Positions 38,043-50,351 of a DNA stretch of 64,000 nt are shown piece by piece. Made by a program: the position numbers and the translations under genes. Where the stretch lies: positions 3,410,001 to 3,474,000 of the forward strand of contig NC_087092.1 in NCBI RefSeq assembly GCF_963855985.1, read 5' to 3'. The notes below the pieces were generated by a model. That model was not told the origin of the DNA. It did no database searches and saw only the letters and a list, made by a program, of their open reading frames with translations. Numbering within the stretch: the first letter of the stretch is position 1; every line of letters begins with the position of its first letter. Source of the stretch: Ostrinia nubilalis. Lineage: Eukaryota > Arthropoda > Insecta > Lepidoptera > Crambidae.

Positions 38043-39503
38043 ATGGCAGTTTGTTCAAAGTGCAAAAAAACATTGCCCACCAAAGAATTTTTGTGCTGTG
38101 TGAAATGCAAATCTAAATATGATCTTTGTTGTGGAAATGTCTCCACACAAAGGTTTTATAATACTATGACACCCGAAAGAAAGAAAAAATGGATTTGTGA
38201 CAGTTGTATACCGAAAAAGTCAACAAAAACAGTATGCATTAACAACAAAATAGATTCTACGTCGACACCATCTACATCAACACCAATACATTCATCGTTA
38301 AAAATTCAAGAAAAGTTAAGTCCTGCAACAGTACAAGCAGAACACTCTCCACAAAGAAATGTCACACGTAGAAAACAACGCAATTTATTGTCAATATCTA
38401 AGTCGTATGAGTCGCTGCTTCAACATGATACGTCAACTAACTTACCTGCAAGAAATAAAAGTATTAGTAGAAGTGTGGAAAATGTATGCGATCTAAATAT
38501 AGTAAAGGACATGAAGAATGACATAGAAAAGCTAAAATTAGAATTGAGTTGTGTGCAGAATGAACTAGAGAATAAGATCCTGGAGAATAATGAGTTAAAC
38601 AGGATAGTACAAGATTTAACAGAAAAAGTGAGCTTCTTAAAAGATGTATGTCGAGAACCGGAAAAAAACAGAAGTCATATCAATACTTCTATACCAATAC
38701 AAGACCAAAACTTATCCGACTGCCGAGACGTAACTTGTAATTCAGAGGATAATTTGATAGTGCAACAGCACTACCAGTCGCAATTCAAAGATGTCGAGGA
38801 GCAGTTTAACAAATTAAGAAACAATTTTGAGAACATTCAGGAGGAAATGAATAAAATATATAATTTAATTGAGTTTTTGAGGAAGGAAATGAAAAAAATT
38901 CGCAGAAAGCCCAAGAATAAAGAAACGTTAATTGCAAGTAGTAAATTTAATCTAAAAAGACATAAAATGTGTATATTGTCTAGTTCAAACACCTATAATA
39001 TCCCAAACATTATTGAGAACTTAAATCTTGACAGTTACTATGATTATTGTCATTACATCAAGAACGGGGCAAGTGTTTTAGAGCTACTCGACGGGTTATA
39101 CTCCAAAGTAAAAGATTTTAACTCCGAAGACTACTGTGTCATATTACTTGGGGAAAGCGATTTCCACCATCAGAAAACATATGCTAAATTAGTGAAAGAA
39201 ATTAGAAAAGCTCTAATACCAGTGATGCACACAAACATCATTCTGGTTCCACCTACATATATTTGTGGTGCGCCTATATTTAATTACAAAGTAGAGGTTT
39301 TTAATAGAGCACTATCCGATGACGTGAGAGAACATCAACACGTTTACATGTTTGATTCTAATCAGGACTTGAAGTACACAATGTTTTCGACAGCAACAGG
39401 AAAACTGAACAAAGCTGGGATGAGGACGATATTTTTGAATATTCAGAAGTTAATAGGTAACATAAACGATGCAAGTACTAGTTTTTTTCGTGGATATGAA
39501 TGA
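38043..39503 (+). CDS. LINE A ORF1: zinc finger, coiled coil, SGNH-like domain
   Basis: This 486-residue protein is the nucleic-acid-binding or accessory protein of a CR1/jockey-group LINE. Residues 4-57 form a PHD-like finger (CSKCKKTL, CCVKCKSKYDLCC, ICDSCI). Residues about 150-205 and 250-295 are charged heptad-like coiled coils. From about 310 a domain reads CILSSSN, ILLGESDFHH, NIILVPPTY and VFNRAL, the order of SGNH esterase blocks found in CR1 ORF1 proteins, although the usual GDS and GxND motifs are altered. The stop overlaps the ORF2 start (ATGAATGA), as expected for coupled reinitiation. The frame is intact. Confidence 0.85.
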   Translation: MAVCSKCKKTLPTKEFLCCVKCKSKYDLCCGNVSTQRFYNTMTPERKKKWICDSCIPKKSTKTVCINNKIDSTSTPSTSTPIHSSLKIQEKLSPATVQAEHSPQRNVTRRKQRNLLSISKSYESLLQHDTSTNLPARNKSISRSVENVCDLNIVKDMKNDIEKLKLELSCVQNELENKILENNELNRIVQDLTEKVSFLKDVCREPEKNRSHINTSIPIQDQNLSDCRDVTCNSEDNLIVQQHYQSQFKDVEEQFNKLRNNFENIQEEMNKIYNLIEFLRKEMKKIRRKPKNKETLIASSKFNLKRHKMCILSSSNTYNIPNIIENLNLDSYYDYCHYIKNGASVLELLDGLYSKVKDFNSEDYCVILLGESDFHHQKTYAKLVKEIRKALIPVMHTNIILVPPTYICGAPIFNYKVEVFNRALSDDVREHQHVYMFDSNQDLKYTMFSTATGKLNKAGMRTIFLNIQKLIGNINDASTSFFRGYE

Positions 39504-41258
39504 CCAAAAAAATCCTGAATATATTAACTATGATGACACCTCTCTTGGATTATTACACCTAAATATTGCTGGAGCTCTAAATAAACAGGATTTACTCCAA
39601 TGTGAAATCATCCAATTCGAAAAAGAACAGCGATTAACAATAGATGTTGTTTGTCTATGTGAAACAAACCTTGAGGTGGGATCAGAGTCAAATTTAAAAC
39701 TCAATAATTTCACAATGGCGACGTGGTTCTCTAGAAAACGCTCAAAACGTGGAGGAGTTGCTATATTACTTAAAAAAGATATAGAATATAAGATGATTGA
39801 CCACCTTAGAAGCTTATCCGAGAAATTTGTCTTCGAATGTTGTGGACTTGAATTAACGGCATATGGCATAATTGTGATTTGTATTTATACTAATAAAACG
39901 CCATCATCTACGAACTCAATATTTTTCAAAAAGCTATCAGATCTGATGTATGAACTGTGTAAAAAAAAACGCAAAAAGATAGTAATTTGTGGAGACTGGA
40001 ACATTAATACTTTATCAAACACTAATATCGCTGTCGAACTACAACAAGTCTTACAAAATTGCAATTTGGAATTAAAGATAAATGAACCCACAAGAATTAC
40101 AAACAACACCAAAACCTGCATAGATCAAATAGCAACCAATATAAAAAGTAGCACATCCAGTATTCATGAATTGGGTCTATCTGATCATACAGCTCAAGTG
40201 CTTAGAATTCCAATCAAAGAAAGAAAGAGACCTGTAACAAAATGGTGGTACGAGTTTCAAAGGGACTATTGCAACGAGAATCAAGAAAAGTTCCTCGAGT
40301 GTTTAAGAAAATTGTCATTTTCAACAATTTATGAAGAAAATCTGAATGCTACCGATTCTTTCAACGAGTTTTACAGTTTGTACAAGTTACTCTATGACTT
40401 ATGTTTCCCTACGGTAAAGGTGAAGAAGTATTTAAGAAGTGAAACTTCAAGGTGGTTAACAAAGGGTATAAGACGAAGTTGTCAAAGAAAGCGTACACTT
40501 TACTTATGTAATCGAAAAAATTATGGCTCTTACAGTATTTTATATAAAAATTATTCATCTATTTTAAAGAAATGTATTAAATTCTCTCAGAAAAGTAATA
40601 ATTTAAATTATATTAATAAATTTGATAACAAATGTAAAGCGGTATGGAATGTAATTAATAGATACACTAAGAATTTTGAAAAGCTAAGCTCGATACAAAA
40701 GATATGTACACCCGAAAATGAGTATAAGGATCCACAGACTATTTCAAATGTTTTTAACAAATATTTTATTGATAGCGTTTCTGGCAATCACCATGAAAAC
40801 TCCAATTCTTACTTGGTTGATGAACATATAGAATCTGTACAGTCTACAATATTTTTAAGTCCAGTATCCGAAACTGAACTCATAAAAATAGTTAACTCCC
40901 TAAAAAACTCGATGTCTGTAGGCTTTGATGAGATTCGCACAGATATTGTTAAAAAGAGTATTTTAATCATAGTACAGCAATTCACATTTGTAATAAATAA
41001 ACTCATGCTTGAAGGTTCTTTTCCTAATGTTTTAAAAAAATCAATTGTAAAACCGTTGTACAAAAAAGGTGCAAAATCTTTATTACAGAACTATAGACCA
41101 GTAACACTTATACCGATTTTTTCAAAAATTTTAGAGAAGTTGATGTTTAGCAGATTGAATAGTTTTTTAGACAGTAATGATGTTATAAAAGAGGAACAGA
41201 ACGGCTTTCGCAAAAGTAAAAGTACATCACTAGCTACATTTAAATTAATTAGATCTAT
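39496..41258 (+). CDS. LINE A ORF2, 5' part: AP endonuclease and start of reverse transcriptase
   Basis: ATG at 39496 overlaps the ORF1 stop. The frame has an earlier ATG (39469), but the overlap favours 39496. The endonuclease keeps LNIAGA, CETNL, IYTNK, CGDWNINTL, TCIDQIATN and GLSDHTAQV, so its catalytic N, E, D/N and SDH residues are present. The RT begins KSIVKPLYKKGAKSL, QNYRPVTLIPIFSKILEKLM, QNGFRKSKST. At 41258 a DNA transposon interrupts it. The open frame runs on to 41352 only by reading into the insertion (chimeric tail). The rest of RT resumes at 49181. Confidence 0.93.
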
Positions 41259-41749
41259 GGGTCATTCTAAGTTAAGAGGTACTTTCGATGTCAAGGGCAA
41301 AAAAGTACCTTTTTTTTATTCTAACTACCTAATTAACCTATTTATTGCTTAAAACTAAATGTCTTCTACATGCTCACTTAAATTTATTACAGAAATGTAC
41401 ACAGTTTAGTCACAATAAGTTCTAATACAAGAAAAACGTCTCTCCCCTGGGCTGTCCCAAACCCGACTTTATCTGTAAACCAGTTATTATGAATGTATTA
41501 AAATTAAATAATTACTTCATCATTGTCAATTTTATACAGAACAATAACTTAGGAACACTGTCTTATAAGTCAAATTACATAAATTCAAATTTTTCATAAA
41601 TAATATCAACGCCGAAATTTGTCCTCCGTATTTTGTGTCTCGTCCCCTGGCTTTTTGTTTTTGTTTAAAAATCAGTTTTGTTTTACTATTTTGTGGAAGT
41701 TGTGGCCTTTAGTGCATAGGATGTAACGTGAAGCTATCAACAAGAGGCG

Positions 41750-42519: not shown

Positions 42520-42785
42520 ATCAAGCAACCTGAAGTGGCAAAGGCCATGACACATAGTACGCAGAACTAACGGCCGATGGGGCAGCAAGGTTCTGGAGTG
42601 GAGACCTCGTACCGGAATGCGCAGTGTAGGACGTCCACCCACAAGGTGGACCGACGACCTCATAAAGGTAGCAGGAAAGGGCTGGATGCAGGCCGCCACC
42701 AACCGGCCATTGTGGAAATCATTGGGGGAAGCCGATTTTAAGCAGTGGACGTCCTATGGCTGAAATAATGATGATGAATAATTGA
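42520..42785 (+). repeat. RTE LINE 3' fragment within the DNA transposon
   Basis: The sequence encodes the RTE C-terminus (VLEWRPRTGMRSVGRPPT, RWTDDLIKVAGKGWMQAATN, RPLWKSLGEA) and ends CTATGGCTGAAATAATGATG with GATGAT repeats. It is the best-preserved RTE tail in the window, so relatively recent. Confidence 0.9.
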
Positions 42786-42818
42786 TGATGATGTTTCTTT
42801 AATCTCCTGGGATCAGGT

Positions 42819-42890
42819 TTTAAAAAAACTACCCTACCCTAAGTTAAAATTGAGAGGGCAGCATTTTTTATGCTTTAATGAATCTATTGA
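42819..42890 (+). pseudogene. transposase-like frame interrupted by LINE B (continues at 48619)
   Basis: The frame SWDQVLKKLPYPKLKLRG then QHFLCFNES runs into the LINE B target site (TCTATTGA). With LINE B removed it continues in frame at 48619 (DVFERRYYIK) and stays open to about 48738. The coding-like composition and exact continuity suggest it is part of the DNA transposon's former protein. Confidence 0.5.
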
Positions 42891-43395
42891 GAATGAGACG
42901 CGCGGGGCGCGGAAGCGGGGCGGACGTGTTTATTTTGCTCCCGTGTATCTTAATGTTTACAATGATTTATCCGAACAATTGATGTGTGGTGAATTTAAAG
43001 TTACATCGCTAATTGCTAAATCTATCTAACTGTGAACCTTGAGTGTTAAAAAGTGGACTAGTTTTAAAACAGTGAACGAATTTATAAAATCAGCTGTTAC
43101 ATTTTGAACGTGTGGTGGTGACCGATAGTGTCGTGTGTCCTTGCTAGGCGAGGTCGGTCATTGAACTCACTGCGCTCGGATCGGATCGTTGATCTTCGTC
43201 TGCGATCGTAAAATCACCGCAGACACATAATAGACAATTTCGCCCGCTCACTGCGTAGCACCGTGGTGTTGTGAGCGTAGCGTGCGATTAAAGTTCACTT
43301 GTCTTGGGACCCTGGTTCAAATCTCGAAGTGACATATTTTTTGTATTTTTTTTTTTTTTTGGGATTTCCTCTTTTAAATAATATATTTTTGAAAA

Positions 43396-44538
43396 ATGGC
43401 ACCGAACAAAATTATCTGTGGAGGGTGCCGTGTTGTTATTGAGGACAAAAGATTTTTGTTGTGTAATGGCTGCGGCCAGTATTACGACTTGATTTGCGCT
43501 AACGTCTCGCAGAAGAGATTTAACAACACACTACCAAAAGATTTCAAGGATGCCTGGCGATGCGCTCTCTGCAAGAGCAACCAGCCGAAATTGGACAACA
43601 CCAACACCCCTGTCCGTGCTGCAGCCGAGGGCGTCACACTGCAGAGAGGAGCTGCAACCAAAAGTCCTGTACAATTGGACATGTCGGCCACTGAGCAGTC
43701 ATTAACCTTTATGGGTAACTTAAATGACACTGCTCATAATATTACCGTTGAGATGTCTGACTATCAAATATTTGCTATGGAGTTGCGCTCATTTAAAGAA
43801 GAGATGCGGGAAGAGCTCAGGGCCAACAGAGTACAAATACAGCAGCTTAATGAAACTATAGCATCGATTTCTAAGAGAGTCACTGAGAGTGAAAGTCGCA
43901 TTAGTAAGCTCGAAGAGCGTATGCAGGTTTTGGAGGACAGTCAGCCCAACGACCAGACACAAAAATCCCTTGCGGCCTCTATTGAGCATCTGAAGGCTGA
44001 ACTGAACGATAGAGATCAAGACCTTCTTCTGAACGACGTTGAAATCTCCTGCATACCTGAACAGAAGGAGGAAAGTCTGTCGCATGTGGTCACGGTCCTG
44101 GCAAGCAAACTGGGTGTTGCTTTGTGTAACCAGGACATCGTAAGTGCCACGCGTGTGGGTCGCAAGTCTGAGTCCGGCGAGCCGCCTGCGCGCCCGCGCC
44201 CCATTGTCGTACGGATGGCGCGGCGCGCGCTGCGGGACCAATTGCTTCAGGCCGCCAGGGTGCGTCGAGGTGCTACTACGGAGGGAACTGGACTTCCTGG
44301 AGCGTCGTGTCGTTTTTATCTCAATGAAAGACTAACAAAAACCAATAGACAGTTATTTAGGCGTGCACGTGATCTGGGCAAGCGGCTTGGATGGCGTTTT
44401 GTGTGGACACGAGATGGCCGGATATATGTGCGTCAGCATCCCGGCAAAGACTCTCCGCGCATTCGTCTCTACACTGAGGCCGATTTGGTCCGGGTTTTTG
44501 GTGCTGATGCCATTGGTTCGTTTGTTGATGGTAAATAG
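43396..44538 (+). CDS. LINE B ORF1: zinc finger, coiled coil, FP25K-like C-terminal domain
   Basis: This 380-residue protein is probably the RNA-binding chaperone of LINE B. Residues 8-60 carry a PHD-like cysteine set (CGGCRVVI, LCNGCGQYYDLIC, RCALCKS). Residues about 115-215 form a coiled coil (ELRSFKEEMREELRANRVQI). From about 215 it resembles the C-terminal domain shared by many insect LINE ORF1 proteins and baculovirus FP25K: NDVEISCIPEQKEESL, ATRVGRK, RPIVVRMARRALRDQLLQAA, RFYLNERLTKTNRQLFRRAR, FVWTRDGRIYVR. The ATG of the next frame (44528) precedes its TAG stop by 8 bases. Confidence 0.88.
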   Translation: MAPNKIICGGCRVVIEDKRFLLCNGCGQYYDLICANVSQKRFNNTLPKDFKDAWRCALCKSNQPKLDNTNTPVRAAAEGVTLQRGAATKSPVQLDMSATEQSLTFMGNLNDTAHNITVEMSDYQIFAMELRSFKEEMREELRANRVQIQQLNETIASISKRVTESESRISKLEERMQVLEDSQPNDQTQKSLAASIEHLKAELNDRDQDLLLNDVEISCIPEQKEESLSHVVTVLASKLGVALCNQDIVSATRVGRKSESGEPPARPRPIVVRMARRALRDQLLQAARVRRGATTEGTGLPGASCRFYLNERLTKTNRQLFRRARDLGKRLGWRFVWTRDGRIYVRQHPGKDSPRIRLYTEADLVRVFGADAIGSFVDGK

Positions 44539-45253
44539 TGATGGCTGCCCTGTGATAGCGACTCTAACAATGTTTAACATCAGTTGTTACTTTATAAGAG
44601 TTTACGGAATTGTTACAATTATCCATAATATTTTAAAAGTGTATTTTGATTGTAATTGCTGTTTGTTTCTCTTCTATTATCAGGTTGCTGTCTTAATACT
44701 ATTGATTTGTATGGGCTTGTTAAAAGTTTTGTTTTCAAATAGTGTGAGTGATGTACTTTACTTTTTGTGTTTTATTGCTGGAGAGACTTGGGTGGGAAAT
44801 TTTACATTGGCCATGGGATGTTTACTCTTGTTTGTTTTTTTTATATTGTCACTTGCATATTTTTTGGTATCTGAAAAGCTTAACCATGATTTTACTCTAG
44901 ATTATTTGTATGACGGTGTGTGTGTCGTGGTGATGCAGGGCAATACTGCTGGTTTTTCCGATGAACGTCTTTTGTGTCAACACTCTGATATCATGACTTT
45001 CTATAATTATTATTACACATTGTTTTACTGTTTATACTATATACGTTCATGTAATTTTAACTTATTTTTATTTGGTAAAGACTTATTTTATGTATTGTTG
45101 ACCACAGTTATTGTAAGTATTGCATATTTAACTAAAAAATATTTTTATTTTTATACAGTATATTTTATTTATATTATTATATCTAATAATTCAAACATGA
45201 AATACACAAGCTTACACTGTGAAGTCTTTTTATTAATTTACTTTAAGAAATGA
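44528..45253 (+). CDS. LINE B middle ORF: hydrophobic, predicted membrane protein, unknown
   Basis: This 241-codon frame fills the whole gap between ORF1 and ORF2. Its ATG overlaps the ORF1 end (ATGGTAAATAG) and its TGA overlaps the ORF2 start (ATGA). It lies in a different phase from both. The product is rich in F, Y, L, I, V and C with about four likely membrane helices (residues roughly 44-67, 92-115, 184-203, 208-222; for example VAVLILLICMGLL and LLLFVFFILSLAYFLV). I recognise no family. The T-rich base composition alone would give hydrophobic codons, but staying open over about 240 codons in AT-rich DNA and fitting both junctions is hard to explain by chance. The same frame is open back to an ATG at 44363, overlapping ORF1; I prefer 44528. 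Confidence 0.6.
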   Translation: MVNSDGCPVIATLTMFNISCYFIRVYGIVTIIHNILKVYFDCNCCLFLFYYQVAVLILLICMGLLKVLFSNSVSDVLYFLCFIAGETWVGNFTLAMGCLLLFVFFILSLAYFLVSEKLNHDFTLDYLYDGVCVVVMQGNTAGFSDERLLCQHSDIMTFYNYYYTLFYCLYYIRSCNFNLFLFGKDLFYVLLTTVIVSIAYLTKKYFYFYTVYFIYIIISNNSNMKYTSLHCEVFLLIYFKK

Positions 45254-48117
45254 TCTCTAAAACAAAATATCTTAAATTGGCGCTGTATAATGCTGGATCT
45301 TTGGGAACCGGTCATGATGACTTTATCGTGGCAATGAAAAGGTTTGACGCGGATGTAGTTGCTATAAACGAGACTTGGCTGCCGGCTGGCCAGGAGGCGC
45401 GTGCGCCTGTCGTGCCAGGGTACAAGCTGCGCAACGCCCCACGCCCGCGACACATGCGTGGCGGTAGGGGCGGTGGCGTCGGGTTTTATGTCAAGCGGGA
45501 TCTACGCGTGCGCTTTTTGAAGCACCCCGTCGCAGATATTGAACAGTTGTGGTTGTCAACACAGGTGAATGGCTTCCGTGTTGTAATCGGGACGGCATAT
45601 AGACCTCAATGGGTTAACGAGGATACATTTCTTGATGCACTGACGGAATCAGTGGTTTCCCTCGCGAACCACGATTGCCTTGTTCTGTTGGGAGACTTTA
45701 ATATTAATTTACTAGATAATCGCGATAGTAGGGTTTCCAAATTGGAGGGTTTTCTTCAGTATTTGGACCTAAAGCAGGTCGTGCGGGAACCAACACATCT
45801 ATCCGCTAACTCCGACACTCTTATAGATTTGGTCTGTACAAACTGTAAAATACGAGATGTTTTTGTTTCTAACATTACCGGGTCCATCGGCCACAAAATG
45901 GTTAATGTCATTCTTTCACTGAAGAAACTTAAGCTCCCCGCAAAGGTGATAACATTTAGACCTATAAGGGATATTGACTTGGCTCAGTTTGAGACTGATT
46001 TGTCCGCGATAGACTGGGAGGAGGTGTCAAGTATCCCTAGTGTGGAAGATATGGTTGGCGAATTTAACGACCGGCTTCTCTCTCTTTTCGATATTCACGC
46101 GCCGCTAATTACGAGAAAGATCAAACCGGCTCAATCGCTGCCGTGGATAACGAACATGATCAAATTTATGATGAACCTTCGTAATGAGGCATATGAAAAA
46201 TATCGACGCACAAAATCTATAGTACATAAGAAATACTATAAAGATCTTAAAGCCATTGTTTCCACTAGCATTTATAATGAAAAACGCGCTTATTTTAATC
46301 ATTTTGTTAATAAAAATGTCAGCAATGGTAAAGCATTTTGGCGAAATGTAAAGGAAAAGGTACTGTTGAGCGCCGATGAAAGCGATTGCTTGCCGGAATG
46401 TTTCGATAACGCTAACAACATTAATTCTCATTTCTTAAATGTACCTGGGACCAATACCATTTCAATTTCTCAATTGTCATATTTTGTTCATCATCGCTTT
46501 GACGATTCCAAGCCACCATTCACGCTGTGTCCTGTTAGGGAGTTTGAGGTAGCAAAATATATTAGCGCCATTAAATCTAATGCAATTGGTAGTGACGGCA
46601 TCAGCAGGGACATGATCGTGCTTACTCTACAGCAATCGTTACCTGTTATTACCAGTATTATCAATAGCTCAATAGCGACAGGGGTATTTCCTCATCAATG
46701 GAAAAGTGCACTGATAACCCCATTGCCGAAAGTCGATCACCCCGCCGAACTAAAGGACCTTCGACCGATAAGCATTCTTCCATTTCTATCAAAAATATTG
46801 GAAAAGGCAATACACGCGCAACTGGTTAAATACATAGAAGGCAATAGGCTCCTTCCGTCCCATCAATCTGGTTTCCGAAAAGGCCGTGGTACTGTCACGG
46901 CACTTCTCGATGTGACCGATAATATACTTGCCGATCAGGATGATGGACGGGGCACTTTGATGGCACTGCTGGATTTCTCACGTGCATTCGATAGTATAAG
47001 CATCCCATTGCTTCTTGCCAAGATGTCTTACTATGGTTTCGACACTCATACAGTTACATGGTTTGCGAGCTATCTGAGTGGCCGGCATCAATCGGTCAAA
47101 CTTCGAAAGGAAGACGGTTCATACTCGATTTCGGAGCCCAGTGTGGTCAATCGTGGGGTTCCTCAGGGTTCTATATTGGGTCCACTCTTGTTTATTTTAT
47201 ATAGTGCAGACCTGGTACATGTAATCAAACACTGCAAATACCATTGTTATGCAGACGATGTTCAACTTTATATCGCCAGTGACCCAACTGAGATACATGC
47301 TGCCTCACGCGCACTGAACGATGATTTGGACGCTATTGCTATCTGGTCAAATGACAACGCTCTGTCACTGAATCCGACTAAGTCTAAGCTTATGGTTCTT
47401 GGTTCGTCAAAGTTGACTGAAAGGATTGTGAACGCTGATCCTGTAGTAAAAATTATGGACACAGTTATTGAGATGGTTAAGGAAACGAGAAATCTGGGCA
47501 TCGTTTTTGACGCTGGTTTGCGCTTCGAGAGCCATGTGCTGGGTCTCGTCAGAAGCTGTTTCTATCGACTGAAGATTTTATACAAGGTCCGTAATCTTTT
47601 GTCCGAAAAGTCGCGTATCGTACTCTGCGAATCGCTGGTATTGTCACGACTTAATTATGGTGACCTCGTGTACGGGCCACGCCTCTTGAGTAAAACGAAA
47701 CGCATGATACAACGTGTGCAAAACGCATGTGCCCGTTTTTGCTTTAATATACCTCCACGAACACATGTATCACCGTTTCTAAATAGTGCGTCCATGCTGA
47801 ATATGGAATCCCGCAGAAGGCTACATATGGCCACCATTATGTTCGATCTCGTTTCGCTAGAAAGTCCCGAGTACCTGCATGCTAAACTGAGGTTTTCTGA
47901 TTTCCATAGGCGTTACGGGCCTGGTCTGCCCAGATCTGCCCGTGTACCCCTAGCGATGCACAAGCACAGAACTGTAGGTTTCACAGGCAGTTTCCGCTAC
48001 CAGGCTACTAAGTGTTGGAACAATATACCACCTCCAATAAGAGCGGCCAAATCAAAGCATGCATTTAAGACTCTGCTTAAATCTGCATTATTGGAGTCGC
48101 AAAAACCTGTAACCTGA
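45250..48117 (+). CDS. LINE B ORF2: AP endonuclease and reverse transcriptase
   Basis: This 955-residue polyprotein carries out target-primed reverse transcription. Residues 1-220 form the endonuclease: LYNAGSLG, INETWLP, YRPQW, LLGDFNINLLD and DTLIDLV are present. At the expected SDH site the sequence reads SIGHKMV, so the catalytic Asp appears replaced by Gly. RT follows from about 490: WKSALITPLPKVD, LRPISILPFLSKILEKAI, HQSGFRKGRGTVTALLD, MALLDFSRAFDS, GVPQGSILGPLLFILYSADL and CYADDVQLYI with both catalytic aspartates. A C-terminal domain with YGDLVYGP and a KCWNNIPPPIR ending is typical of the jockey group. There are no stops or frameshifts. The start overlaps the preceding stop (ATGA). 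Confidence 0.93.
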   Translation: MISKTKYLKLALYNAGSLGTGHDDFIVAMKRFDADVVAINETWLPAGQEARAPVVPGYKLRNAPRPRHMRGGRGGGVGFYVKRDLRVRFLKHPVADIEQLWLSTQVNGFRVVIGTAYRPQWVNEDTFLDALTESVVSLANHDCLVLLGDFNINLLDNRDSRVSKLEGFLQYLDLKQVVREPTHLSANSDTLIDLVCTNCKIRDVFVSNITGSIGHKMVNVILSLKKLKLPAKVITFRPIRDIDLAQFETDLSAIDWEEVSSIPSVEDMVGEFNDRLLSLFDIHAPLITRKIKPAQSLPWITNMIKFMMNLRNEAYEKYRRTKSIVHKKYYKDLKAIVSTSIYNEKRAYFNHFVNKNVSNGKAFWRNVKEKVLLSADESDCLPECFDNANNINSHFLNVPGTNTISISQLSYFVHHRFDDSKPPFTLCPVREFEVAKYISAIKSNAIGSDGISRDMIVLTLQQSLPVITSIINSSIATGVFPHQWKSALITPLPKVDHPAELKDLRPISILPFLSKILEKAIHAQLVKYIEGNRLLPSHQSGFRKGRGTVTALLDVTDNILADQDDGRGTLMALLDFSRAFDSISIPLLLAKMSYYGFDTHTVTWFASYLSGRHQSVKLRKEDGSYSISEPSVVNRGVPQGSILGPLLFILYSADLVHVIKHCKYHCYADDVQLYIASDPTEIHAASRALNDDLDAIAIWSNDNALSLNPTKSKLMVLGSSKLTERIVNADPVVKIMDTVIEMVKETRNLGIVFDAGLRFESHVLGLVRSCFYRLKILYKVRNLLSEKSRIVLCESLVLSRLNYGDLVYGPRLLSKTKRMIQRVQNACARFCFNIPPRTHVSPFLNSASMLNMESRRRLHMATIMFDLVSLESPEYLHAKLRFSDFHRRYGPGLPRSARVPLAMHKHRTVGFTGSFRYQATKCWNNIPPPIRAAKSKHAFKTLLKSALLESQKPVT

Positions 48118-48580
48118 TTGCGCCTTGGTAGTGGTTTCTGATCTGGTCCAGTGGTTTCATGCGTGGTTGTTTTGTTGAACCCTGGCATAATTTGCATAAT
48201 TTTTATTTTTATATTATTTTTATCAGTGTATTTTCTCCTTTCCTCTTTATCATAAATATCTTAATCTATTTAGTTATATTTATGTACTTAAACTCACCAC
48301 ACCCCAACCGTCACGTTGACGTGTTACGCGCGTTCTTTCGTCCTTAGGCTATAGCTGAAAATCAGTGGTTTGCTTTTAAGTAAACCAATTACTGAGCTAT
48401 TGCCGTTTTGCATTGCTGCGACACACATTTCTGTATAAAGTGTGTACCTATATTGTATGTCATAATGATTTTTTTTTTTCTTTTTATTTCTGTCTTACCA
48501 TACCATGTCATATTGTCCTGAGGGTACTATTTTGTCCTACTTTTGGTACTTTCTGTTTGTAATGTGTGTTTCTGTTATGC

Positions 48581-48610
48581 AAATAAACGTTTTATCTATC
48601 TATCTATCTA
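48581..48610 (+). terminator. LINE B poly(A) signal and (TCTA)n tail
   Basis: AATAAACGTTTTATC is followed by TATCTATCTA repeats that run directly into the TCTATTGA target duplication. A tetranucleotide tail instead of poly(A) is common in this LINE group. Confidence 0.8.
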
Positions 48611-48618
48611 TCTATTGA

Positions 48619-48738
48619 TGTCTTTGAACGCAGGTATTACATAAAGATTTTTTTTAGCTACCTCTTAAATTCTCAATTCAAATGGTTGTTTAAGTACAAG
48701 AGTTCAATACTGTTTCAGAGAAGTTTTTGTTTCTTTTT
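48619..48738 (+). pseudogene. transposase-like frame, right-hand part
   Basis: This continues the frame of 42819-42890 across the LINE B empty site (DVFERRYYIKIFFSYL) and remains open to a TGA at about 48750. It belongs to the enclosing DNA transposon. Confidence 0.45.
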
Positions 48739-49180
48739 ATTTCGTTATTGACTATTGATAGTTGGTTTGATGGAAAGTAAAAGTAAGAACCTTTTTATGT
48801 TTTGTACCTAGGCTTAAAATACATTTTTGTTAACAAAGTTTGCTAAAAAATGAAAAGTCTTATTATAAATAATTCATAATTAAAATTAAAATAAATAAAT
48901 AAAGTTGATTCCTAAAAATAACACTGTTTTAGTATGTCTATGTCTTTTCCCTGTCCATAATGTTTCCTCCCCTGTGCACCTTGTCTCTACCCTGGACTGA
49001 GTATTTACCCTGGTCGCTTATAAAACGAGAAAAAACCAACAAATTGACTGGCCACTTTGTAAACATTTTCAACTTAAAGGTTTCCATAAAACAGATATAT
49101 ACTTAAGTAAAAATATTTAAAAAAATGCCGTGCCGTCGCTCCATACAACACATTACCTCTTAACTTAGAATGACCCCTAT

Positions 49181-50351
49181 AACAAATTGTGTTAATGATG
49201 GTATTCCAGTGTCAGTTCTGTTCCTCGATATGACAAAAGCTTTCGATTTTGTATGCCACAAAGTACTTCTTTCGAAACTTTATAAATATGGTATTCGCGG
49301 ACCATGCTACACATGGATCGAAAGCTATTTGTCACAGAGAGAACAATGTGTGGTAACTCAGAAGTATTGTCCTAAAAGTAGATGTTTAGAGAACTATGTA
49401 TCATCATGTGAAGTTAATAAATTTGGAGTGCCTCAGGGTAGTATCTTGGGACCGCTTTTGTTCCTTCTGTATATTAATGATCTACCCAGAAGTATACCAC
49501 ATGAATGTATCTTGTTTGCAGATGATACCACTGTTGTTATCAAAGGTGATAAAGATAAAAATTATTTATGTCATGAAAGTGATATAAACATGGCATTATG
49601 TAAGGTTATTGAGTGGCTTAATAGAAACAATTTAAAAGTAAACATAGATAAAACAAAATACATACAATTTGGTACACATAAAAAAATACAACCGAAACTT
49701 AACATACATTTTAAGGGACAGGTAATTAACGCTGTTCAACATACAAAATTTTTAGGAATAACTTTGGACAGTCATTGTGATTGGAAGCAACATATATTTG
49801 AAATCTGTTCAAAGCTGAATAGGTTTGTTTTCGCTCTTAGACGTATTAGTCAAATTGTATCACAAGAGGCTGCTATCACTGCTTACAATGGCTATGTAAA
49901 TTCATCTTTGCGCTATGGAGCTTTAATCTGGGGAAACTCTGTACATAGGGATAAGGCATTTATTATGCAAAAGAAATGTATTCGAGCTATTTTTGGACTA
50001 CAACAAATAGACTCCTGTCGTCCCTTTTTTAGAAAATATAATCTGTTAACTTTACCTTGCCTTTACATTTTTGACTGTTGTTTATTTGTCCAACAAAATC
50101 AAGACTTGTTTATTCAGAAATTTCAAATTTCAAATCGAAACCTACGCTCTGTATACAGAAATAAACTAGTAAGGCCTCAGACAAAATTAACACTAGCATC
50201 AAGGAATGCTTTTATTATGTGTATAAAAATATATAATAAACTACCAGACGATTTTAAAGAACTAAAATTCTCAAAATTTAGAAATGTTATTAAAGAATGG
50301 TTAACTAAAAAATGTTTTTATAGTGTACAAGAATACCTAGATTATAAATAA
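49181..50351 (+). CDS. LINE A ORF2, 3' part: reverse transcriptase catalytic half and C-terminus
   Basis: It resumes the frame broken at 41258: 1763 nt before plus 1171 nt here make 978 codons including the stop. It contains VSVLFLDMTKAFDFV (first catalytic Asp), FGVPQGSILGPLLFLLYIND and LFADDTTVVI (catalytic DD), then thumb and C-terminal blocks (FLGITLDSHCDWKQHI, LRYGALIWGN, IRAIFGL, KIYNKLPDDFKEL). An ATG at 49170 inside the transposon end lets it look like a separate 393-codon gene, which it is not. Sequence is intact, so LINE A was probably whole until the transposon landed. Confidence 0.93.

What the first reader, a model, noticed from the sequence alone, without database searches (positions are those of the whole stretch)
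44528..45253. A third, membrane-protein-like ORF between ORF1 and ORF2 of an intact LINE
Seen: a 241-codon open frame exactly fills the 711 bp inter-ORF gap of LINE B. Its ATG overlaps the end of ORF1 (ATGGTAAATAG) and its stop overlaps the ORF2 start (ATGA). About four hydrophobic segments are visible. Known: LINEs of this group normally encode two proteins, and silkworm SART1 translates ORF2 by termination-reinitiation at an overlapping stop/start. Inference: LINE B may translate three proteins in series, the middle one membrane-bound. The open frame in AT-rich DNA without stops suggests selection. T-richness explains hydrophobicity but not frame maintenance or both exact junctions.
Basis: partly seen in the sequence, partly recalled or inferred. 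Interest (0 to 1): 0.82.

Follow-up and report, generated by a model that had tools for sequence, protein, structure and literature searches.

The report
Stop-free bridging frame inside a LINE
A moth or butterfly jumping gene carries, between its two known genes, a third reading frame kept free of stop signals although its protein hardly seems to matter, which may help ribosomes pass from the first gene to the second.

Summary
Window 44528-45253 is a 241-codon frame that fills the 711-bp gap between ORF1 and ORF2 of an intact LINE. Its start overlaps the ORF1 stop (ATGGTAAATAG) and its stop overlaps the ORF2 start (ATGA). It has 0 stops in 236 gap codons against 17-22 in the other five frames; 0 of 5000 dinucleotide shuffles are open. 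The membrane reading is not supported: hydrophobicity is what the T-rich composition gives, T is even over codon positions, and no homolog was found. Of 154 ORF2 relatives in hand (the named ones lepidopteran), 17, all in one clade, carry 34-340 variable, mostly hydrophobic residues in frame with ORF2, ending in a conserved motif before the endonuclease. Upstream of the motif, 14 of 16 testable pairs do not beat 95% of shuffles although their ORF2s are 62-70% identical: openness is kept, the peptide turns over. My reading: a translated bridging frame relaying ribosomes from ORF1 to ORF2. Translation, reinitiation, peptide dispensability and common origin with the relatives' extensions are inferred. 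The decisive test, sister copies in the host genome, could not be run: that tool did not complete (16 tries).

The parts
43396..44538 (+). ORF1, 380 aa: weak PHD-like finger, coiled-coil-like middle, Baculo_FP_2nd domain
   Evidence: frame; Baculo_FP_2nd E 8e-10 (above cut-off), PHD E 0.005 (below cut-off), several coiled-coil-type models below cut-off
44336..45250 (+). full stop-free extent of the middle frame (305 codons), reaching about 200 nt back into ORF1
   Evidence: upstream stop TAA 44333-44335
44528..44538 (+). first junction ATGGTAAATAG: middle-frame ATG overlapping the ORF1 TAG stop; an alternative middle-frame ATG lies at 44507
44528..45253 (+). middle frame, 241 codons, T-rich (45% T), no detectable homolog; proposed ribosome bridging frame
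45250..45253 (+). second junction ATGA: ORF2 ATG overlapping the middle-frame TGA stop; the ORF2 frame is closed by TAA at 45244-45246
45250..48117 (+). ORF2, 955 aa: AP-type endonuclease and reverse transcriptase
   Evidence: RVT_1 E 1e-32, Exo_endo_phos E 6e-10; 198 relatives at E <= 0.001
48593..48613 (+). 3' tail of TATC-type microsatellite repeats
   Evidence: read directly
42978..42985 (+). possible left target-site duplicate ATTGATGT (right copy 48614-48621); weak, since by my own estimate about one such 8-mer match is expected by chance and the same call lists others

Best explanation
The middle frame is a real, translated bridging frame. Ribosomes ending ORF1 restart at the overlapping ATG (44528, or they are already in that frame from 44507), translate 241 codons of U-rich RNA, stop at the TGA inside ATGA, and a fraction restart on the overlapping ORF2 ATG. 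Selection keeps the passage free of stops and in register, while its peptide is barely constrained. In a related clade the second stop/start is gone and the bridge is read straight into the endonuclease as a variable N-terminal extension of ORF2, with only its last ~39 residues conserved. Shown: openness and both junctions in this copy, in-frame extensions in the relatives, loss of peptide similarity among most of them. Inferred: that the frame is translated, that reinitiation is the mechanism, that the peptide is largely dispensable, and that window bridge and relatives' extension share an origin.
For: Openness: 0 of 5000 shuffles. Relatives: 17 ORF2 proteins carry 34-340 residues before the conserved RH motif. 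That is 2275 codons, where 107 stops are expected at 3/64 (called ORFs lack stops by definition, the sequences are related and their DNA was not seen, so this shows only that the extensions are far longer than chance runs). They sit in one clade of 20 rows, SH-aLRT 100; the other three members start inside the motif (P0063) or inside the endonuclease (P0093, P0125). Peptide turnover: of the 16 pairs with ORF2 identity of at least 62% and at least 40 upstream residues each, 14 have 14 or more of 200 shuffles as good. In five pairs examined, upstream distances are 4.6 to 7.5 times those of ORF2. Phase: 3 of 11 long extensions have LM[PQLR] at their start (0.02 expected each); in the other frame this can read Asp-Ala of an ADAIG-like ORF1 end as in the window. 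14 AUGs lie between the ORF1 stop and the ORF2 start, 6 of them in the middle frame. The ORF2 frame closed at 45244-45246 leaves almost no room for a -1 frameshift.
Against: No ribosome, transcript or second-copy data. A relay need not be 700 nt long, so the length suggests some further role of RNA or peptide. The window peptide resembles none of the 17 extensions beyond shuffles (24 or more of 200 as good) and lacks their motif, so common origin rests on position, phase and composition. Two of 16 pairs do show residual similarity: P0091/P0099 z 5.0 (1 of 200) and P0090/P0091 z 2.6 (4 of 200); four of the other 14 are at 7-10% of shuffles. Codon-position base composition of the middle frame is not beyond a stop-free null (P 0.27; plain chi-square P 0.05). 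RNA around the junctions is no more structured than shuffles, whereas a structure after the junction is reported as required in SART1 (PMC5972666, passages). No middle-frame homolog was found in the protein search, so no second element with a separate middle frame is known to me. ATGA-type overlap is not evident across relatives' ORF2 starts.
Confidence: 0.5

Rival explanations
1. The middle frame encodes a functional but fast-evolving small membrane protein that tethers or assembles the retrotransposon RNP at membranes. In the related clade it is fused to ORF2 as a membrane anchor.
For: An open, hydrophobic frame in the window; all 11 extensions of at least 108 residues have positive GRAVY (0.32 to 1.38), and three have more TM-like segments than 93-97% of their own residue shuffles (P0054 13/500, P0122 34/500, P0038 34/500 as many or more). 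Membrane roles are proposed for esterase-type LINE ORF1 proteins (PMC3905857, passages).
Against: Hydrophobicity does not exceed composition in the window, and T is even over codon positions. TM-like counts vary from 0 (P0090) to 6 (P0122) among those 11 extensions. Peptide similarity is lost in 14 of 16 pairs at 62-70% ORF2 identity. In the AlphaFold model of a fused ORF2 (P0075, 58 rows), 154 of the first 183 residues are in segments below pLDDT 50, while 664 of all 1124 residues are at 90 or more (few rows cover the extension).
Confidence: 0.2
2. The middle frame is read by ribosomal frameshifting rather than reinitiation: +1 (or -2) from ORF1 into the middle frame gives an ORF1-bridge fusion, and in the fused clade an ORF1-bridge-ORF2 polyprotein.
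For: The middle frame overlaps ORF1 by about 200 open nucleotides. The fused clade would need only one shift.
Against: In the window a second shift into ORF2 would have to happen within a few nucleotides, because the ORF2 frame is closed by TAA at 45244-45246. I saw no standard slippery heptamer there by eye (no tool was run for it). The overlapping start codons would be coincidences.
Confidence: 0.12
3. The spacer is non-coding U-rich RNA (for example an internal ribosome entry or spacing element), and this copy's open frame is relic or chance.
For: Position-independent T-richness. No homologs. No coding periodicity beyond a stop-free null.
Against: 0 of 5000 shuffles open; stop codons are missing specifically in this frame; in-frame extensions in 17 relatives; exact junctions at both ends.
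Confidence: 0.08
4. The fused ORF2 with N-terminal extension is the ancestral form, and the window's middle frame is the same coding region split off by a frameshift that turned its end into an ATGA junction.
For: Same position before the endonuclease, same composition, and in three extensions a start consistent with the same phase to ORF1.
Against: The fusion is confined to one clade inside the tree; the neighbouring row P0067 (grouped with it at SH-aLRT 88) and 101 other sequences start with Met 9-15 residues before the anchor column of the endonuclease. The conserved motif is absent from the window middle frame. The tree root is unknown.
Confidence: 0.1

Closest known systems
Silkworm SART1 (R1-clade LINE), ORF2 translated by termination-reinitiation at an overlapping UAAUG
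   Same: Overlapping stop/start junction and coupled translation as the likely mode (PMC5972666, passages; Kojima et al. 2005 itself not held)
   Different: SART1 couples ORF1 directly to ORF2 (recalled; the review passage says only overlapping stop-restart site); here a 241-codon frame lies between two overlaps, and no structure stands out near them
CR1-lineage LINEs with a PHD plus RRM-like ORF1 (type IIIB, CR1 subgroup 4 of Metcalfe and Casane 2014)
   Same: PHD-like finger and an RNA-binding-like C-terminal part in ORF1; endonuclease and RT in ORF2 (PMC4120745, passages)
   Different: The passages read describe no frame between ORF1 and ORF2; the main text holds neither 'transmembrane' nor 'third ORF'
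Mammalian LINE-1 unconventional ORF2 translation
   Same: ORF2 follows a spacer and needs a non-standard route (PMC5972666, passage)
   Different: The L1 spacer is 63 nt (same passage) against 711 nt here; the L1 ORF0 (named in abstracts of the listing) is a different third ORF
Esterase-type ORF1 LINEs (zebrafish ZfL2-1)
   Same: The suggested link between LINE RNPs and membranes (PMC3905857, passages)
   Different: A conserved, folded esterase domain in ORF1; the middle frame here has no recognisable domain

Membership tests
Autonomous AP-endonuclease LINE (non-LTR retrotransposon) | ORF2 with AP-type endonuclease and reverse transcriptase | tested here: met
   (RVT_1 1e-32, Exo_endo_phos 6e-10); by sequence the nearest solved chains are reverse transcriptases, R2 among them
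Autonomous AP-endonuclease LINE (non-LTR retrotransposon) | upstream ORF1 | tested here: met
CR1 lineage, ORF1 type IIIB | PHD finger and RRM-like domain in ORF1 | tested here: inconclusive
   PHD E 0.005 and Transposase_22 E 0.07, both below cut-off; Baculo_FP_2nd above cut-off
CR1 lineage, ORF1 type IIIB | RT placed in the CR1 lineage by phylogeny with named references | not tested
   no named clade references at hand; the tree holds only ORF2 relatives
Coupled termination-reinitiation cistrons | stop and start overlapping or adjacent | tested here: met
   both junctions
Coupled termination-reinitiation cistrons | RNA structure near the junction promoting restart | tested here: inconclusive
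   four ~140-nt segments, z between -0.4 and 0.6; longer-range or pseudoknot structure not tested
Coupled termination-reinitiation cistrons | downstream product depends on translation of the upstream frame to its stop | not testable with these tools
   needs a reporter assay
Integral membrane protein | hydrophobic segments beyond base-composition expectation | tested here: not met
   3 observed, null mean 4.6 in 2000 simulations; residue shuffles give at least 3 in 468 of 500; no dedicated TM predictor was available
Integral membrane protein | conserved homologs or domain | tested here: not met
   no family or homolog; only chance-level matches (best E 0.91; E 0.25)

The most novel reading that the evidence does not exclude
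LINEs of this lepidopteran group keep a long T-rich cistron open purely as a ribosome conduit between two stop/start overlaps: a tricistronic retrotransposon in which selection acts on the absence of stops and on register, not on the peptide. A related clade has fused the conduit to its endonuclease-RT protein.
Probability: 0.35. Interest if true: 0.8.

Novelty: new variant of a known kind. Interest (0 to 1): 0.55.

Why it matters
How eukaryotic bicistronic LINE RNAs get their second protein made is largely open outside L1 and SART1 (recalled). A family in which a 700-nt passage is kept open with little peptide conservation, with a related clade that lacks the second junction, is a natural experiment: one stop codon placed in the bridge would test the relay directly. 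It also warns that T-rich open frames look like membrane proteins by composition alone.

Tried and rejected
Membrane protein: rejected as the default reading because hydrophobicity follows composition. Domain or fold for the middle frame: nothing in Pfam, PHROGs one hit at E 0.25, PDB sequences best E 0.91, protein database 515 candidates and none at E <= 1; AlphaFold from the single sequence gives mean pLDDT 43, so no fold search was made. Rfam: no match up to E 1 over 42700-48700. Junction RNA folds: nothing beyond shuffles.

DNA of relatives: two scans of viral contigs and one of genome contigs with ORF2 or its alignment gave no confirmed relative. Other copies inside the window: no second match to the middle frame; only a PHD-region match to ORF1, two distant matches to ORF2, and DNA matches to the left flank and a piece of the 3' end.

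Second residue of 102 ORF2s (window included) that start with Met 9-15 residues before the anchor: residues with A-starting codons (I, M, T, N, K) 46 of 102 against 45% background, so a general ATGA overlap is not shown. Met-Met 9 of 102 against 1% is suggestive only; Ala/Val/Gly/Asp/Glu 35 of 102 against 14% fits ordinary start context.

The motif profile found no counterpart in the window's middle frame. Papers: nine searches; the titles and abstract starts listed showed no report of such a frame, but the library lacks most subscription journals and, as far as I know, Repbase reports. Passages seen: PMC1925062, PMC6740152, PMC4120745, PMC5972666, PMC3905857, PMC5009743; no paper was read whole.

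Full report
What is there. The window holds a LINE with intact ORF1 (43396-44538), a middle frame (44528-45253) and ORF2 (45250-48117), followed by a 3' UTR and a TATC-type tail. ORF1 carries a weak PHD match, coiled-coil-type matches and a Baculo_FP_2nd domain; ORF2 carries endonuclease and RT. The ORF2 relatives that bear a species name in the listings come from moths and butterflies (Plutella, Heliothis, Mythimna, Galleria, Amyelois, Melitaea, Ostrinia, Loxostege, Euphydryas), so the host is most likely lepidopteran (inference).

Is the frame real? The 711-bp gap is 45% T. At its dinucleotide make-up a frame should hold about 16 stops; the middle frame holds none, the other forward frames 22 and 17, the reverse frames 19 each. 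No shuffle of 5000 is open in any forward frame. In this frame the TAN codons are all TAY (25:0), against 35:23 in the other two forward frames. Both ends meet the neighbouring ORFs in exact overlaps. I take the frame as maintained by selection, at least until recently.

Is it a membrane protein? Simulated stop-free sequence of the same dinucleotide make-up has on average 4.6 TM-like segments and GRAVY 1.07; the real one has 3 and 0.91. T is nearly even over codon positions, so the bias is at nucleotide level. Base composition by codon position is at P 0.05 by plain chi-square but at P 0.27 against the stop-free null, so little but the missing stops marks it as coding. No homolog was found (chance-level hits in 17, 18) and there is no confident fold.

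Relatives. The protein search with ORF2 scored the 7995 candidates sharing most words, found 198 and listed 120, at up to 72% identity. A second search with an alignment of five fused proteins found 233 and listed 120, 34 of them new. Of the 154 relatives so in hand, 17 have 34-340 residues in frame before a conserved stretch beginning RH and ending at GSL of the endonuclease: 39 residues from RH to GSL in 16 of 17 and 40 in P0058. They lie in one clade of 20 rows (SH-aLRT 100, quick tree of 138 of 155 sequences, ORF2 part only); its other three rows start inside the motif (P0063) or the endonuclease (P0093, P0125). Extension starts are those chosen by gene callers and may be limited by contig ends.

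Peptide turnover. Upstream of the motif, 16 of 136 possible pairs met the filter (ORF2 identity at least 62%, at least 40 residues each). Two exceed shuffles (P0091/P0099, 1 of 200 as good; P0090/P0091, 4 of 200); fourteen do not reach the 5% level (14 or more of 200; four of them 14-20). In five pairs examined, Kimura-type distances upstream are 1.9-2.9 against 0.26-0.48 for ORF2; such large distances are near saturation. The AlphaFold model of the fused P0075 with 58 rows has 154 of its first 183 residues in segments under pLDDT 50, while endonuclease and RT are mostly above 90; few rows cover the extension, so low confidence there is expected anyway.

Link to the window. Sequence similarity between the window frame and the 17 extensions is absent (24 or more of 200 shuffles as good in all 17), and the motif is not in the window frame. 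The link rests on position, composition and phase: three of 11 long extensions begin with LM[PQLR], which is how the window's ORF1 end ADAIG looks when read in the middle frame. ORF1 sequences of those elements were not seen. No other element with a separate middle frame was found, so the three-cistron layout itself is known from this one copy.

Mechanism. The ORF2 frame is closed immediately upstream (TAA 45244-45246), so a -1 frameshift has almost no room; an overlapping AUGA is a recognised restart arrangement (PMC5972666, passages). Fourteen AUGs lie between the ORF1 stop and the ORF2 start, so scanning from ORF1 to ORF2 is unlikely. The simplest account is two successive termination-reinitiation steps with the middle frame as a bridge. 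Against it: the length is unnecessary for a relay, and no promoting RNA structure was found.

Limits. No DNA of any relative could be read, so dN/dS and sister-copy tests were not done; the own-genome search did not complete in 16 tries. The clade name (CR1-like) is recalled and from paper passages, not from a tree with named references.

Noticed in passing
window 38043-41352: A second LINE (ORF1 486 aa, weak PHD-like N-terminus, E 0.15; second ORF 627 aa that matches residues 30-551 of the ORF2 studied here at 26% and then ends) whose two ORFs overlap directly by 35 nt with no middle frame.
   Followed up: partly
window 49170-50351: RT-only remnant (393 aa, 31% identical over 297 residues to the RT part of the ORF2 studied here) about 550 bp downstream of its tail.
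   Followed up: no
window 44541-44555: A four-codon mini-ORF (ATG GCT GCC CTG, then TGA) with G at -3 and +4 directly after the ORF1 stop, in the third frame; it could catch or delay restarting ribosomes.
   Followed up: no
relatives P0122, P0072, P0041 and 14 others (protein searches): A clade of LINE ORF2 proteins with an N-terminal, variable, mostly hydrophobic extension and a conserved ~39-residue motif before the endonuclease; no Pfam match in that part in the three scanned (P0075, P0122, P0041).
   Followed up: yes
P0043 (Galleria mellonella gene model): An annotated host protein that joins the ORF1 C-terminal part to ORF2; probably a gene-prediction intron across the region in between (inference, DNA not seen).
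   Followed up: partly
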